Assembly (NCBI RefSeq): GCF_008630635.1
Contig: NZ_CP043869.1
Span: 2,231,160 to 2,295,159, forward strand
Direction of reading: 5' to 3'
DNA from: Neptunomonas concharum
GTDB lineage: Bacteria; Pseudomonadota; Gammaproteobacteria; Pseudomonadales; Balneatricaceae
Length of the DNA stretch: 64,000 nt
A program made the translations under genes and the position numbers. The notes below the pieces were generated by a model that saw nothing but the letters and a program-made list of their open reading frames with translations, ran no database searches and had not been told where the DNA came from. This document shows positions 43,311 to 48,414 of this stretch, in pieces. The first letter of the stretch is position 1, and the number at the start of each line of letters is the position of its first letter.

Positions 43311-44090
43311 ATGATTGATATCGGCGCTAACTTAACTGACAAACGTTTTCATGCGGACTTGCCCGAGGTGATAGATCGTGCCAAAGCCGCTGGCTTGGGG
43401 CATATAATTGTAACGGGGACATCTATAAATAGTGCCAGATCTGCACAGTTGCTTTGCGATAAGTATCCTGAATACTTGAGCTGTACCGTCGGCGTACATC
43501 CTCATGATGCGAGTCACTTTGAGGAAAGGGACTATTCGGTGCTTAAGGAACTCGCTCAACACTCTGCCGTCGTAGCCATTGGTGAAACGGGGCTCGATTA
43601 TAACCGCAACTTCTCACCTGCTAAGGCACAACACTTTGCATTTGAGCAGCAGATTCAACTTGCTGTTGAGACTCAGCTCCCTCTATTTCTCCATGAGCGG
43701 GAAGCAGAAAAAGATCTGATAGAAACTATCAATCCTTACCTATCCCAACTAAAGGGCGCGGTTGTGCACTGTTTTACCGGTGACAAAACGACACTGTACC
43801 GTTACTTAGATATGGGACTATATATTGGTATTACAGGATGGGTGTGTGATGAGAGGCGCGGGCTTCCACTACTGGAGCTTGTCGCACAAATACCCGATGA
43901 CCGCATCTTATTAGAGACAGATGCCCCTTACTTGTTACCAAGAAACCTTTCCCCTAAACCCAAAAAAGGGAGGAACGAGCCTAGCTTTCTGCCACATGTA
44001 GCCGCAACGATTGCAAACGTTAAAGGCATCTCCACCCAATCGTTAATAGATAAAGCCACTCAGAATACGCGGTTACTCTTTAGCCTATAG
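43311..44090 (+). CDS. tatD: TatD family DNase
   Basis: 259 aa, metal-dependent nuclease of the TIM-barrel hydrolase superfamily. The N-terminus MIDIGANLTDKRF matches TatD proper, where the HxH of YcfH-type relatives is replaced by DIGxNLT. Other metal-site motifs are VGVHPHD, IGETGLDYNR, LFLHEREA, VHCFTGD and LLETDAPYL. E. coli TatD has 3'-5' exonuclease activity linked to peroxide damage repair. It starts five bases after slt and its 3' end overlaps the convergent glutaredoxin-like gene slightly. Confidence 0.93.
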   Translation: MIDIGANLTDKRFHADLPEVIDRAKAAGLGHIIVTGTSINSARSAQLLCDKYPEYLSCTVGVHPHDASHFEERDYSVLKELAQHSAVVAIGETGLDYNRNFSPAKAQHFAFEQQIQLAVETQLPLFLHEREAEKDLIETINPYLSQLKGAVVHCFTGDKTTLYRYLDMGLYIGITGWVCDERRGLPLLELVAQIPDDRILLETDAPYLLPRNLSPKPKKGRNEPSFLPHVAATIANVKGISTQSLIDKATQNTRLLFSL

Positions 44091-44330
44091 CGCTTTATTC
44101 ACAAACCGCACTAACTGTTCCTGATCAAAGGGCCAATACAGTGCTTCTTGAGATATTTCATCCAAAAGTACTGGAATAGTTTCTCCGTATTTCTCAAGCA
44201 AGTGATCATCATATGCGATATCAATCACATCAACCTGATGCTTTTCGCTATCCAAACACCCTATTAAGAGCTGCTCTGCCACATCACATAAATGACAACC
44301 ATCCGTGCTGTACATCAAAAAACTACGCAA
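44085..44330 (-). CDS. Glutaredoxin-like protein (DUF836)
   Basis: 81 aa from a TTG start at 44330, chosen because AGGAAGG lies nine bases upstream and it gives the family N-terminus RSFLMYSTDGCHLCD. The redox motif is CHLC near residues 12-15, and TIPVLLDE is the cis-Pro loop near 55. Upstream sequence that could extend the frame to 44483 has no family similarity; an internal ATG at 44315 would cut into the first strand. Likely a small cytoplasmic thiol-disulfide protein; substrate unknown. Confidence 0.8.
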   Translation of the reverse strand: MRSFLMYSTDGCHLCDVAEQLLIGCLDSEKHQVDVIDIAYDDHLLEKYGETIPVLLDEISQEALYWPFDQEQLVRFVNKAL

Positions 44331-44460
44331 AAAATATATCCTTCCTAAAATTAAGGGATTTTGACTATTGATCACCATGCAGAATCTTACTTCTCTGCTA
44401 GAATGACAGGCAAGTAATTTGCGCTCAAACCATCGAGATACCACGCTAAGCGAGTGAACA

Positions 44461-44997
44461 ATGAAACCTAAAATCACCCCCATTGATCATGAAGTCTCTC
44501 TTACCGATGACGAATTTATCGTTAGTAAAACTGATACTAAAGGACTCATTACCTACGTAAATCGTACCTTTATGTCCATTTCTGGCTATTCTGAACCCGA
44601 GCTTTTGGGTATCCAGCACAATATTATTCGTCACCCCGATATGCCACGGGGTGGGTTTAAAATGATGTGGGATACCCTAAAAACGGGGGAAGAGTTTTTT
44701 GTCTACGTTAAGAACTTATGCAAAGACGGCAGCTACTATTGGGTCTTCGCCAATGTCACACCCGATTATGACACCCAAGGACAGCTTCGCGGCTACTATT
44801 CAGTACGTCGAAAACCATCCCGGCTAGCCATTGATACCATCACACCCATTTACCAAGCAATGTTAGAAATAGAGAAGAAAAGCGGCACAAAAGACGCAAT
44901 GACCCACTCCCTTGCTTACCTAAATGACACACTCAAGGCGATGAAAATCGATTACTCCTCTCTCGTCCTCAGCTTAGATAAAGAGGAAAACACATGA
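44461..44997 (+). CDS. PAS-domain protein, Aer/CetB-like
   Basis: 178 aa. A single PAS domain spans about residues 15-125 with the Aer-type signature [29 protein letters not shown] near 58 and the [10 protein letters not shown] strand; Aer PAS domains of this kind bind FAD. A helical tail of about 50 residues follows. There is no membrane or signalling domain. The stop overlaps the next gene's start by ATGA, and that gene encodes a membrane chemoreceptor without a PAS domain, so the two likely act as one redox receptor, as CetB and CetA do in Campylobacter. Confidence 0.85.
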
Positions 44998-46496
44998 ATA
45001 TTAAGCAACCCCAAAGATCCGGGATTAGCGCTGGCGCTCTCTTTTTAGATCAACGTATCCGCTTATATTGCTTTATCTTTGTCGCCATTTCTATGGTCAG
45101 TTCATTGTTGGTGATGTTCCTCTACGATATGAACTTTCTGTGGTTGCTCCAGCCTATTCTCAGCACCTACATAGCATTTCGCCTGTTACAAAGAACTGAT
45201 AATGCGATTGACGCTCTGAAGACCATCTATGAAACACTGCACAATGCCAATCAAGGGCGCTTTCATGTGCGAATTACCAAAACAGCCAGACTTGGCGAAG
45301 TAGGCAAAGTTGCTTGGGAAGTAAACGATTTTCTAGATAAGGTCGAGTCTTACTTCAAAGAGGTTGACTCCTGTTTCAAACATGTAGCCAAAGGCAATTA
45401 TGATCGCCCCGCGCTTCACCGCGGATTGCCTGGCTTACTCAAACAGTCTCTTGAAAATATCAACTTAGCACTGACAGAGATGCAAAAAGGCTCACAGCTA
45501 CTTGTGGCAAACGAGCTCCACTCCGAACTGCACTCACTGAATACAAGCCATCTAATTAATAACTTACGACAAACCCAAGATGACTTGATACGTATCGGAG
45601 AAGAAATGGCTCGGGTCGAAACCATTGCCAACGATAACGGTAATGCAGCTCACAGCAGTCAATCCTCTGTCAGGGAAATGGTTAAAGCACTCGACAATAT
45701 TTCTACGACCATTAACTCAGTCGCTACCGTCGTCAATCAATTAGGAAAAGACAGCGACCGGGTGAAAGAGTCACTTTCCATCATTACTGACATTGCTGAC
45801 CAAACCAACCTGTTAGCTTTAAATGCCGCCATCGAGGCCGCTAGGGCCGGTGAACAAGGCCGTGGCTTTGCCGTAGTAGCAGACGAAGTCAAAGCACTGT
45901 CCAGACGTACCAAAGAAGCGGCAGTTGATGTCTCTGCAACCATTAATACTTTTAGCGATCGTGTAGAAGAGATGGTTTCTCAGGCCTCTGAGTCTAATGC
46001 CATTGCGTCCGAGGTAAATGAGATGGTGAATGGGTTTAAGGACCAATTCGACACTTTCTCAAACGGATCAAAAGATACTATGATAGCGGTAGCCTGTGCG
46101 AAAGACCGTGCTTTTGGCTGTTTAGCTAAAGCAGATCATATTATTTTCAAACAAAATGGTTACTTAGCTCTAGATCATTCAACCAACCGTGATAAAGAGA
46201 TTGAGGCCACCTCAGTGACTCATCACCAATGCCGCTTAGGCCGCTGGTACTATGAAGGTGTAGGTTTTGAAACGTTCTCAAGTACTCAAGCGTATCAACG
46301 CCTAGAAATGCCACACGCCAATGTTCATGCTGCCGTGCAAAAAGCCATTTCGTTAAGAGATGCAGATTGGGTTGGTGATAAGTCTATTAAACAAGAAATT
46401 GTTCAGGCGATGTCGTTAGCAGAAGAGGAAAGTTACAAAATTTTGAAATATATCGATGCTATGATTGATGAGCAACACACTAACACTCGCGCCTAA
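44994..46496 (+). CDS. Methyl-accepting chemotaxis protein with CZB domain
   Basis: 500 aa. Two adjacent membrane helices (about 24-62) with almost no periplasmic part, HAMP-like helices (about 65-150), the MCP signalling hairpin with the conserved tip [31 protein letters not shown] split around residue 275, and a C-terminal CZB zinc domain (about 365-490). CZB ligands are visible as [16 protein letters not shown] and PHANVH. CZB domains bind zinc and respond to hypochlorite or zinc. It is coupled to the PAS gene by four bases; GAGG precedes the ATG. Domain order resembles Aer without its PAS. Confidence 0.9.
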
Positions 46497-46671
46497 AGTT
46501 TAAGAAATTACGGTTTCTCAGTACTTGCAAGCGCCGTAGTGGCAAGGATATGCTCAAACGACAGTTTCACAACTGGTTACTGAAAACCTGTTATCAATAG
46601 CTCTGCAAACACGCCGCTAAGAAATGATGATCATGTCGGGCGAAGGCAGACTTTACGAAAAAGGCAGTTTC

Positions 46672-48414
46672 ATGGAAAACAACAGCAACAACTTGACTAA
46701 CCCGCAAGAGTTTATTAACTACGTAAACCAAGAAACGCAAAAGCTTCTTGAAAATTTTTCCTCTGCGGGTGGTGATGACATCTTCAGCCAATTCACTCAA
46801 TCATGGACCGATTTGGCAACGCGTTCGATGGAAGACCCAACGGTTTGGATCAAAGCGATTTCTGATTACCAAATGGCGCAAATGAATCTCTGGAAAAGTC
46901 TACTGACGGGACAGTCTGAAGCCGCGCCTGTAGCAAACCCTGCTCCTGGCGATCGTCGTTTTAGCGCCGAAGAGTGGTCAACAAACCCTGTTTTTAGCTA
47001 TATCAAACAGTCTTACCTCTTGGGGTCAAACCTACTACAAAACATGGCAGCGAACGCTAAGCTTTCTGAAACGGAACAGAAAAAGCTGGAGTTTTATACG
47101 CAACAATATATTGATGCAATGTCCCCTACCAATTTTGCTATTACAAATCCGGAAGTACTACAGCAAGCATTAGAGAGTAAAGGGCAGAGCTTGGTCGATG
47201 GCCTCAAAAACCTACTCGGAGACCTAGAAAAAGGTCGCATTACCATGACGGATGAAAGCGCTTTCGTTCTTGGTGAGAATATAGCGACAACGGAAGGCGC
47301 TGTTGTCTTCCAAAACCGTATGTTCCAGTTGATTCAGTACAAGCCGACAACCGAAGAAGTATTTGAAAAACCAACACTGATCGTACCGCCATGTATCAAC
47401 AAATTTTATATCTTGGACCTCCAAGAACATAACTCCTATGTTAAGTACTGCGTTGATCAGGGCCAAACTGTATTCCTAGTCTCTTGGATTAACCCAACAA
47501 CTGATCAGAGCGATATCAGCTGGGACGATTATGTAGGTGAAGGTGTTCTCAAAGCGATTGACGTTGTGAAAGAGATTTCAGGATCGGCGAAGGTGAATAC
47601 AGTTGCTTGGTGCATCGGTGGAACCCTGATGGCTTCCGCACTGGCGGTCATGGCCCATCGTAAAGATACCAGCGTATCATCAGCAACCTTCCTGACAACC
47701 TTGACAGACTTCCAAGACCCAGGTGATTTGTGTGTCTTTATCGATGAGCAGCAGGTTAAGCGCTTAGAAGATAAAGTTAACAACCAAGGCTATCTATCCG
47801 GAAAAGAACTGGCTACTTCGTTCAATATGCTACGTTCGAATGACTTGATTTGGTCTTATGTCGTTAACAACTACTTAAAGGGCCAGACACCACCTCCATT
47901 TGACATCCTTTATTGGAATGGAGACTCAACCAACCTACCTGCTGAAATGTATACCTATTACATTAATAAGATGTACTTGGAAAATAAACTTTCAGAAAAA
48001 GATGGGCTGACAATCTGTGGATCACCGGTGGACTTAGGCCGCATCAAAACGCCATGCTATTTCTTATCTACAATTGAAGATCACATTGCACCTTGGAAAG
48101 GCACATTCAAGGCTACCGAAACATTCGGAAGCAATATTGAGTTTGTACTCGGAGCCAGTGGTCACGTAGCAGGGGTTATCAACCCAGCCTCGAAAAACAG
48201 AAGAAACTACTGGGTTAAAGGCGAGCAAGGCAAAGGGCCTGACCACTGGCTGGAAACTGCCGAGCGTGTCGAAGGCTCCTGGTGGCCGAACTGGGCTGAT
48301 TGGCATAAGCGTCGCGGCGGTAAGAAAGTACCGGCTCCAACCGCTTATGGTAACGAGGAGCACTCCGTTATCGAAGCAGCTCCTGGTAGCTACGTGGCAG
48401 TACGTATCGCTTAG
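46672..48414 (+). CDS. phaC: Class I poly(3-hydroxyalkanoate) synthase
   Basis: 580 aa; polymerises 3-hydroxyacyl-CoA to PHA on granules. An N-terminal helical domain (to about 200) precedes the alpha/beta-hydrolase core. The catalytic triad is C314 in VAWCIGGTL, D470 in IEDHIAPW and H498 in GASGHVAG. The nucleophile motif usually reads GxCxGG; here the first Gly is Ala (AWCIGG). AAGG lies before the ATG at 46672; upstream in-frame Mets are rejected. No phaA, phaB, phaP or phaR is adjacent. A strong terminator follows. Confidence 0.93.
   Translation: MENNSNNLTNPQEFINYVNQETQKLLENFSSAGGDDIFSQFTQSWTDLATRSMEDPTVWIKAISDYQMAQMNLWKSLLTGQSEAAPVANPAPGDRRFSAEEWSTNPVFSYIKQSYLLGSNLLQNMAANAKLSETEQKKLEFYTQQYIDAMSPTNFAITNPEVLQQALESKGQSLVDGLKNLLGDLEKGRITMTDESAFVLGENIATTEGAVVFQNRMFQLIQYKPTTEEVFEKPTLIVPPCINKFYILDLQEHNSYVKYCVDQGQTVFLVSWINPTTDQSDISWDDYVGEGVLKAIDVVKEISGSAKVNTVAWCIGGTLMASALAVMAHRKDTSVSSATFLTTLTDFQDPGDLCVFIDEQQVKRLEDKVNNQGYLSGKELATSFNMLRSNDLIWSYVVNNYLKGQTPPPFDILYWNGDSTNLPAEMYTYYINKMYLENKLSEKDGLTICGSPVDLGRIKTPCYFLSTIEDHIAPWKGTFKATETFGSNIEFVLGASGHVAGVINPASKNRRNYWVKGEQGKGPDHWLETAERVEGSWWPNWADWHKRRGGKKVPAPTAYGNEEHSVIEAAPGSYVAVRIA

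What the first reader, a model, noticed from the sequence alone, without database searches (positions are those of the whole stretch)
44461..46496. Split Aer-like redox receptor with C-terminal CZB zinc domain
PAS (178 aa) and a PAS-less membrane MCP with HAMP-like linkers are overlapped by ATGA. Aer normally has both in one chain; Campylobacter CetB/CetA is split like this. The extra CZB domain on the MCP would let one receptor combine flavin redox state with zinc or hypochlorite sensing. The frames differ by one base shift, so an ancestral fusion broken by frameshift is also possible.
Basis: partly seen in the sequence, partly recalled or inferred. Interest (0 to 1): 0.52.

Follow-up and report, generated by a model that had tools for sequence, protein, structure and literature searches.

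The report
Two-protein oxygen sensor with zinc domain
This marine bacterium makes a swimming-control receptor from two separate proteins, one predicted to sense electron flow with a flavin and one carrying a zinc site that may sense oxidants, and the same pair turns up in many other bacteria.

Summary
It is not a broken fusion: of 34 CZB-bearing relatives found by MCP similarity alone, 32 have a separate PAS gene beside them; no frame in 120 loci holds both domains; junctions fall in all three relative frames. The PAS is predicted to match the E. coli Aer PAS (Z 19.6, rmsd 0.9, 127 residues) and keeps the flavin contacts of the proven CetB2 sensor. The MCP has a transmembrane hairpin, tandem HAMP-like units and a nine-residue signature shared with CZB-less partners. 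So this is a CetB/CetA-type bipartite energy-taxis receptor. The CZB is the unusual part: four zinc ligands intact in 79 of 86 MCPs (window included), in those 79 exactly 90 residues from the hairpin phenylalanine, the register of Helicobacter TlpD. On a tree built without CZB columns, CZB pairs form one group. My searches found no held paper describing a CetA with CZB. Best reading: one receptor with two cytoplasmic redox inputs, FAD (electron transport) and zinc (oxidant or zinc pool). Architecture is well supported; sensing is inferred. New variant of a known kind.

The parts
44461..44997 (+). cetB-like gene: stand-alone PAS protein, 178 aa
44518..44811 (+). PAS domain (residues 20-117), predicted FAD site: H53 N54 R57 F66 W70 N85 V99 R116
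   Evidence: Equivalents, at an offset of one, of the CetB2 FAD contacts named in PMC12442639; H53, N54, R57, F66, W70, N85, R116 kept in 100-107 of 107 PAS proteins, V99 is V in 70 and I in 34
44821..44982 (+). C-terminal three-helix tail of the PAS protein (residues 121-174)
   Evidence: AlphaFold2, mean pLDDT 95.3
44983..44987 (+). GAGGA, likely ribosome-binding sequence of the MCP gene, inside the end of the PAS gene
   Evidence: sequence; similar in 4 of 5 congeners
44994..44997 (+). ATGA stop/start overlap
44994..46496 (+). cetA-like gene: membrane MCP with C-terminal CZB, 500 aa
45045..45191 (+). transmembrane hairpin (residues 18-43 and about 48-66)
   Evidence: AlphaFold2 helices, hydropathy; the end of the second segment is my estimate
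45180..45497 (+). tandem HAMP-like units (about residues 63-168)
   Evidence: profile matches to solved HAMP units; Pfam HAMP in 13 of 69; model
45255..45434 (+). nine-residue signature G88 R93 N111 D115 E118 E123 R138 G144 G147
   Evidence: exact spacing in 66 of 85 CZB and 19 of 22 CZB-less relatives; not in the other MCP loci of this genome that were examined
45630..46061 (+). MCP signalling domain (residues 213-356)
   Evidence: Pfam 2.1e-30
46137..46349 (+). CZB domain (residues 382-452)
   Evidence: Pfam 2.8e-14; family search of the genome
46137..46139 (+). zinc ligand H382, 90 residues after hairpin F292
46230..46232 (+). zinc ligand C413 (CRLGRW motif)
46314..46328 (+). zinc ligands H441 and H445 (HxxxH)
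44379..44404 (+). inverted repeat GCAGA-N10-TCTGC overlapping an extended -10-like TGCTAGAAT; possible control site, unproven
   Evidence: same arms in 4 of 5 congeners; the 22-base pattern occurs once in the genome; the sigma-70 scan did not call a promoter here

Best explanation
The two genes make a bipartite energy-taxis receptor of the CetB/CetA type. The PAS protein (CetB-like) binds FAD, follows the redox state of electron transport and docks on the HAMP-like region of a membrane MCP (CetA-like) that has no N-terminal or periplasmic sensor domain of its own. The MCP passes the signal down its coiled coil to CheA. In this subfamily the C-terminal arm of the MCP ends in a TlpD-type CZB zinc site, placed just below the HAMP-like units. 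Loss of zinc (through oxidant attack on C413 or a fall in the free-zinc pool) should shift the same coiled coil. The receptor would thus add a zinc/oxidant input to the flavin input before the kinase. Shown here by sequence and prediction: the pair, its conservation, FAD-site residues, helix hairpin, HAMP-like region, zinc ligands and their fixed register. Inferred: FAD and zinc binding, complex formation, signal integration, and the direction of the swimming response.
For: Pair conservation: of 34 CZB-bearing MCPs found by MCP similarity alone, 32 have a PAS gene beside them; of the other two, L034 has a divergent PAS of 25% identity upstream and L059 runs off its contig. Pooled with 80 loci that were picked by their PAS, 105 of 107 distinct MCPs have it (83 of 85 with CZB, 22 of 22 without). 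PAS best match is the Aer PAS by sequence (8dik, E 1.5e-30) and by fold (Z 19.6, rmsd 0.9, 127 aligned). FAD contacts of the biochemically proven CetB2 are kept in 100-107 of 107 PAS proteins at seven of eight positions. CZB ligands H382/C413/H441/H445 intact in 79 of 86 MCPs, window included; F292-to-H382 distance 90 in 79 of 79, the same as F225-to-H315 in the TlpD crystal structure (residue numbers from passages) and as in short MCP-CZB frames without a TM/HAMP part (L079, L080, L141, L070). CZB pairs lie on one side of one branch of a tree built without CZB columns (76 of 95 rows, SH-aLRT 92). Precedents: CetBA2 of Magnetospirillum (overlapping genes, two-hybrid contact, FAD), TlpD zinc-to-kinase coupling, Salmonella McpA CZB in oxygen taxis. 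The genome has one CheA match, two flagellin matches and 15 MCP matches.
Against: No binding, interaction or behaviour was measured. The mirror-tree correlation between PAS and MCP exceeds all 500 permutations (r 0.48 for TM+HAMP) but is no higher for the HAMP region (0.44) than for the signalling region (0.47), so it shows joint descent and not a specific contact. L034, L064, L065 and L090 have lost three or four of the zinc ligands and L147 and L155 the first histidine, yet keep a PAS partner, so the zinc input is dispensable in some lineages. The pair is patchy: at the cut-offs used, 7 of 194 genomes of the order with none of the 6 same-family genomes listed, and 6 of 8 in the genus. The AlphaFold2 model is of a monomer, pTM 0.55. 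The SH-aLRT of 92 is below the level the tool stars.
Confidence: 0.72

Rival explanations
1. An ancestral single-chain Aer-like receptor was recently broken in two by a frameshift.
For: The two frames differ and overlap by 4 bases; this genome also has a fused Aer-like receptor (PAS and MCP matches in one 519-aa frame).
Against: Separate PAS and MCP genes in 32 of 34 CZB relatives found by MCP similarity; no frame with both matches in 120 loci. Upstream junctions fall in all three relative frames (73, 21 and 4 of 98), with a 26-base overlap, counted from the longest frame, in 32 of 67 named downstream pairs. The five congeners with the pair keep 179-183 aa PAS and 500 aa MCP frames. The PAS protein has its own confidently predicted three-helix tail.
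Confidence: 0.02
2. Only the PAS senses; the CZB is a zinc-locked structural cap of the C-terminal arm, or serves localisation, and gives no signal.
For: The CZB sits at a fixed register in all 79 members with intact ligands; some relatives lack the ligands but keep the region; the H. pylori TlpD C-terminus is said to be required for polar localisation and function (title of PMC13001251 in the listing; paper not opened).
Against: Ligands intact in 79 of 86. D381 and W418, at the places of TlpD D314 and W345 that link the zinc site to the helices, are kept in 93% and 99%. In TlpD and McpA the site signals.
Confidence: 0.2
3. The CZB-bearing MCP works mainly alone as a membrane-tethered zinc/oxidant receptor; the PAS protein is an accessory or acts with other partners.
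For: McpA and most TlpD orthologues have no PAS domain; in C. jejuni cetC complements a cetB mutant, so partners can be swapped (PMC3558505 passages); an orphan CetB-like PAS exists in this genome.
Against: PAS beside the MCP in 32 of 34 CZB relatives found by MCP similarity; the nine-residue signature shared with CZB-less partners of PAS genes suggests a kept docking surface; in Magnetospirillum each single deletion copies the double one.
Confidence: 0.08

Closest known systems
CetBA2 of Magnetospirillum gryphiswaldense (PMC12442639)
   Same: Overlapping cetB and cetA genes, small PAS protein with the same FAD contacts, membrane MCP without its own sensor domain
   Different: The main text of that paper does not mention CZB or zinc; I had no CetA2 sequence to compare
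CetA/CetB(/CetC) of Campylobacter jejuni (PMC2628428, PMC3558505)
   Same: PAS-only protein plus TM-hairpin HAMP MCP as two proteins; a family of 55 HAMP/PAS pairs already proposed
   Different: There the genes are 17 bp apart and cetB lies downstream of cetA (inferred from locus numbers and constructs); the passages read report no CZB on CetA; the CZB receptor of C. jejuni is a separate cytoplasmic protein, Tlp6
E. coli Aer
   Same: PAS fold with FAD site (44% identity to 8dik over 126 columns), TM hairpin, HAMP, MCP (general knowledge)
   Different: One chain; no CZB
TlpD of H. pylori and soluble MCP-CZB receptors (PMC12871147)
   Same: Same zinc ligands and 90-residue register from hairpin Phe to first His; D-H and C-R-x-G-x-W surroundings
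   Different: TlpD is soluble; its PAS is fused, has no obvious pocket, and is missing from most orthologues outside Helicobacter
Membrane-bound MCP-CZB receptors (cluster II of PMC8262984)
   Same: Membrane MCP with C-terminal CZB
   Different: The passages and section read mention no separate PAS partner; the one in this genome is dCache_3-HAMP-MCP-CZB, 754 aa, with a register of 150, not 90

Membership tests
CetB/CetA bipartite energy-taxis receptors | PAS-only and MCP proteins encoded by adjacent genes | tested here: met
   Window pair; 32 of 34 CZB relatives found by MCP similarity
CetB/CetA bipartite energy-taxis receptors | MCP with TM hairpin and HAMP-like region and no N-terminal or periplasmic sensor domain | tested here: met
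CetB/CetA bipartite energy-taxis receptors | Nine residues conserved in HAMP and neighbouring signalling region | tested here: inconclusive
   Nine conserved residues with fixed spacing found, but the 2009 paper that lists its nine is not held, so identity could not be compared
CetB/CetA bipartite energy-taxis receptors | PAS with FAD-contact residues and Aer-like fold | tested here: met
CetB/CetA bipartite energy-taxis receptors | FAD binding, PAS-MCP contact, role in energy taxis | not testable with these tools
   needs experiment
CZB proteins | 3 His/1 Cys zinc ligands with CxxGxW motif | tested here: met
   H382 C413 H441 H445, CRLGRW; Pfam above its cut-off
CZB proteins | Zinc binding and zinc- or oxidant-dependent signalling | not testable with these tools
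   needs experiment
TlpD-like soluble MCP-CZB receptors | cytosolic, no membrane segment | tested here: not met
   predicted TM hairpin at residues 18-66
TlpD-like soluble MCP-CZB receptors | CZB at the TlpD register of the coiled coil | tested here: met
   90 residues from hairpin Phe to first His, as TlpD F225 to H315; TlpD residue numbers taken from passages, its sequence was not aligned
Aer (single-chain) | PAS and MCP in one polypeptide | tested here: not met
   separate genes here and in relatives

The most novel reading that the evidence does not exclude
A widely kept class of chemoreceptor (found here mostly in Gamma- and Betaproteobacteria, with a few examples from Campylobacterota and Acidobacteriota) combines two independent redox measurements in one complex: electron-transport state through a detachable FAD-PAS subunit, and oxidant or zinc-pool state through a CZB fixed at the TlpD register just below the HAMP docking site. 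The two would converge on one coiled coil, so that cells could tell useful oxygen from damaging oxidant. The CZB was joined to the CetA front end once and then kept, with zinc ligands lost in only a few lineages.
Probability: 0.35. Interest if true: 0.68.

Novelty: new variant of a known kind. Interest (0 to 1): 0.5.

Why it matters
In the papers seen here, CetB/CetA pairs have been studied by experiment in two groups of bacteria, and CZB receptors as a separate class whose true signal (HOCl, zinc pool or oxygen) is still argued over. A widespread receptor that carries both sensors lets the two signals be separated in one complex: remove the PAS gene or change one cysteine and ask which stimulus is lost. 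It also gives FAD-based and zinc-based aerotaxis a shared, testable site of convergence.

Tried and rejected
Frameshifted fusion: rejected. Sigma-70 scan: no site before the PAS gene; 2 sites found in 44000-46750, both inside the MCP gene, against 4.6 expected by chance. The conserved inverted repeat with an extended -10-like element is a lead only. Mirror-tree test for specific HAMP-PAS co-evolution: no specificity beyond joint descent. phmmer of the CZB tail alone against solved structures: nothing at E up to 10. The structure searches of the whole MCP model were filled by long coiled coils, and the 50 rows shown in each do not include a DgcZ CZB entry; this says nothing against the fold. 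A 740-aa frame in G487 that could have been a fused PAS-MCP-CZB turned out, on reading, to be another kind of membrane receptor with a long N-terminal part before the MCP and CZB (not scanned against Pfam). A second fused Aer-like frame of this genome looked gigantic only because it reads into withheld sequence; its true length is unknown. Guessed ligand numbers in my first notebook entry were wrong; one search gives the right ones.

Rows dropped or conditioned: L029 and L033 were dropped as duplicates of L095 and L100. L067, L069 and L070 had no single MCP frame with both N-terminal and tip matches and are in no pooled count; L069 and L070 have no PAS, L069 being a contig fragment and L070 a short MCP-CZB frame. 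L068 is cut by its contig end, so its missing CZB is not evidence; it is one of the 22 'no CZB', and two more of the 22 are other MCPs upstream of the same PAS genes (L114, L124). One of the 83 counted partners (L049) is only a 72-aa PAS piece. The 80 loci were picked by their PAS and kept as the best 80 of 590, so their adjacency and the 52-of-72 CZB share describe close relatives of this PAS only; 8 of the 80 had no adjacent MCP, 5 of them flagged as running out of sequence. Alignment A4 holds the window and 68 of the 69 MCPs listed (L090 left out), all chosen for a CZB match, so 67 of 69 is no independent count; A5 holds the window and 58 of the 64 PAS proteins listed. The tree used 95 rows with an upstream PAS and complete frames.

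Literature searches for the combination. Only PMC12442639 was read in whole sections at length (2.1, 2.2, 2.5, discussion), PMC8262984 in one section and PMC13370339 in abstract and one section; the others in passages or listings. The 2009 paper defining the HAMP/PAS family is not held, and the 2011 paper naming CZB was not opened, so 'not in print' is limited to those searches.

Full report
What is there. The window holds a 178-aa PAS protein (44461-44997) and a 500-aa MCP (44994-46496) in one direction, sharing ATGA. The PAS protein hits PAS_3 (5.4e-15); the MCP hits MCPsignal (2.1e-30, residues 213-356) and CZB (2.8e-14, residues 382-452). Neighbours are a glutaredoxin-like gene on the other strand and, by reading of the translated frames, a TatD-like gene upstream and a PHA-synthase-like gene downstream (these names are recalled, not searched). 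The genome (3.56 Mb, one contig) has 15 MCP matches and two CZB matches, one CheA match and two flagellin matches. It also has a fused Aer-like receptor (PAS and MCP matches in one 519-aa frame) and an orphan CetB-like PAS of 147 aa.

The PAS protein. Its closest solved structure is the E. coli Aer PAS, by sequence (8dik, E 1.5e-30) and by fold (Foldseek E 6.9e-15; VIA Z 19.6, rmsd 0.9 over 127 residues). The AlphaFold2 model (mean pLDDT 95.3) adds a three-helix tail after the PAS core. The FAD contacts reported for CetB2 of Magnetospirillum (His54, Asn55, Arg58, Phe67, Trp71, Asn86, Val100, Arg117; PMC12442639 section 2.5) fall, at an offset of one, on H53, N54, R57, F66, W70, N85, V99 and R116 here. 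In 107 PAS proteins of such pairs, the window's included, these are kept in 102, 100, 104, 101, 107, 102, 70 (34 more are Ile) and 102.

The MCP. AlphaFold2 (mean pLDDT 87.1, pTM 0.55, monomer) gives helices 18-43 and 48-86, a connector, helix 102-132, a second connector, then a hairpin 147-284/286-392 and further helices at 400-406, 414-420, 423-428, 432-453 and 463-499. I read that as a TM hairpin, two HAMP-like units sharing a helix, the signalling hairpin and the CZB. The profile of alignment A4 (window and 68 relatives) matches solved HAMP units at 63-164 (9trk, E 2.8e-13) and 55-156 (Aer2, E 1.2e-6). Pfam HAMP rings in 13 of the 69, and CZB in 67 of the 69, which had been chosen for a CZB match.

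Is the split old? In the order, 7 of 194 genomes, own included, have a match at E 1e-40, and the six others all have a PAS gene upstream. In the class, 27 of 369 match the 7-row profile at 1e-70, and in the phylum 7 of 398 match the 69-row profile at 1e-100; both include the own genome. In the genus, 6 of 8 have it, with 63-68% MCP identity and 75-76% PAS identity. Of 34 CZB-bearing MCPs found in this way, without regard to PAS, 32 have a PAS gene beside them. Of the two others, L034 has a divergent PAS upstream (25% identity) and L059 ends at a contig edge. A scan of titled genome records with a PAS alignment gave 80 loci, the best of 590: 72 have an adjacent MCP, 52 of them with CZB and 20 without. 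Pooled, 105 of 107 distinct MCPs have a PAS gene beside them (83 of 85 with CZB, 22 of 22 without), but the named part was picked by PAS, one counted partner (L049) is only a 72-aa piece, and one 'no CZB' protein is cut by its contig. No frame in the 120 loci holds both PAS and MCP matches. The 98 upstream junctions fall in all three relative frames (73, 21, 4), and a 26-base overlap of the longest frames is the commonest (32 of 67). A recently broken fusion would not give this. Three loci have a PAS gene on both sides of the MCP (L045, L055, L104), which recalls CetC, CetA and CetB in Campylobacter.

Family. Nine residues, G88 R93 N111 D115 E118 E123 R138 G144 G147, recur with the same spacing in CZB-bearing and CZB-less relatives (alignments). 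The exact pattern is in 66 of 85 and 19 of 22, and a looser form of it was found in no other MCP locus examined in this genome. The CetA/CetB family is said to have nine conserved HAMP residues (PMC2628428 passage), but the paper listing them is not held, so I could not match them one by one. By gene layout, domain content, flavin site and predicted folds I file the pair with CetB/CetA.

The CZB. The four ligands H382, C413, H441, H445 are intact in 79 of 86 MCPs, window included. Of the other seven, L034, L064 and L090 differ at all four positions, L065 at three, L147 and L155 only at the first His, and L159 is cut. The distance from the hairpin phenylalanine (F292) to the first ligand is 90 in all 79. 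In the TlpD crystal structure the matching residues, by their spacing, are F225 (followed by D230, E231, R233 as D297, E298 and K300 follow here) and H315, also 90 apart; these numbers come from passages, and I had no TlpD sequence to align. Short MCP-CZB frames without a TM/HAMP part (L079, L080, L141, L070) give 90 too, as does a membrane receptor in G487; the dCache-CZB receptor of this genome gives 150. TlpD's D314-R341 salt bridge and W345 have counterparts D381, R414 and W418, of which D381 and W418 are kept in 93% and 99%. From the last signature Gly to the hairpin Phe the distance is 145 in 42 of 47 CZB and 9 of 19 CZB-less proteins in which a script could find both. So either a TlpD-type signalling-CZB unit, or its CZB end alone, appears to have been joined to a CetA front end. 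By simple hairpin counting (inference) H382 faces about residue 188, some 20 residues below the second HAMP-like unit.

Origin. On a tree of the MCP core (residues 20-360, CZB left out, 95 rows) the 76 CZB rows are one side of one branch (SH-aLRT 92, below the starred level; quick method; shuffled labels need 17.5 changes on average). They include Gamma- and Betaproteobacteria, a Sulfurimonas and a Holophagaceae bin. One origin is favoured but not proven, and the root is unknown.

How it probably works. In M. gryphiswaldense CetB2 binds FAD, contacts CetA2, and the pair drives cells away from oxygen; either deletion copies the double one (PMC12442639, sections 2.1, 2.2, 2.5 and discussion read). 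In TlpD the zinc-bound receptor is thought to be kinase-ON and the empty one kinase-OFF, with changes at the zinc site running down the coiled coil (PMC12871147, a preprint, passages). In Salmonella, CZB receptor McpA mediates attraction to oxygen and oxidants through the free zinc pool (PMC13370339, a preprint; abstract, passages and section 12 read). Putting these together, the window receptor should carry two inputs on one hairpin. This is inference. The main rival is that the CZB only caps the arm. The PAS-MCP distance correlation shows joint descent (r 0.48, above all 500 permutations) but nothing special about the HAMP region.

Novelty. Bipartite receptors and membrane MCP-CZB receptors are both known (PMC2628428 passages; PMC8262984 section on architectures). 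My searches found no held paper that puts CZB on a CetA-type receptor; the one paper with CZB, bipartite and chemoreceptor places CZB on a different protein. The CetBA2 paper does not mention CZB or zinc, nor does a 2026 aerotaxis review. Hence a new variant of a known kind.

Noticed in passing
44379-44404: Inverted repeat GCAGA-N10-TCTGC overlapping TGCTAGAAT upstream of the PAS gene; same arms in 4 of 5 congeners (not L075); the 22-base pattern occurs once in the genome.
   Followed up: partly
L035:5824-7014 (-): Orphan CetB-like PAS of 147 aa (52-53% identity to the window PAS, ends before the tail) directly followed by a 248-aa phosphonate-binding-type protein; no MCP match in the 14 kb stretch.
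   Followed up: partly
L035:8089-9927 (-): 612-aa frame with a long run of near-identical LEAER-type repeats.
   Followed up: no
L045, L055, L104: MCP-CZB genes with a PAS gene on both sides, reminiscent of CetC, CetA and CetB.
   Followed up: no
L034, L064, L065, L090: CZB-bearing CetA relatives that have lost three or four zinc ligands but keep the CZB region and a PAS partner; possible natural zinc-blind variants.
   Followed up: no
L017:160-2421: Second CZB receptor of this genome: dCache_3-HAMP-MCP-CZB with the zinc site 150 residues from the hairpin Phe instead of 90, followed by a response-regulator-like frame.
   Followed up: partly
L049, L050, L067: Apparently decayed or mis-assembled copies: short PAS frame (L049), stop inside the MCP match (L050), MCP in two frames (L067).
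   Followed up: no
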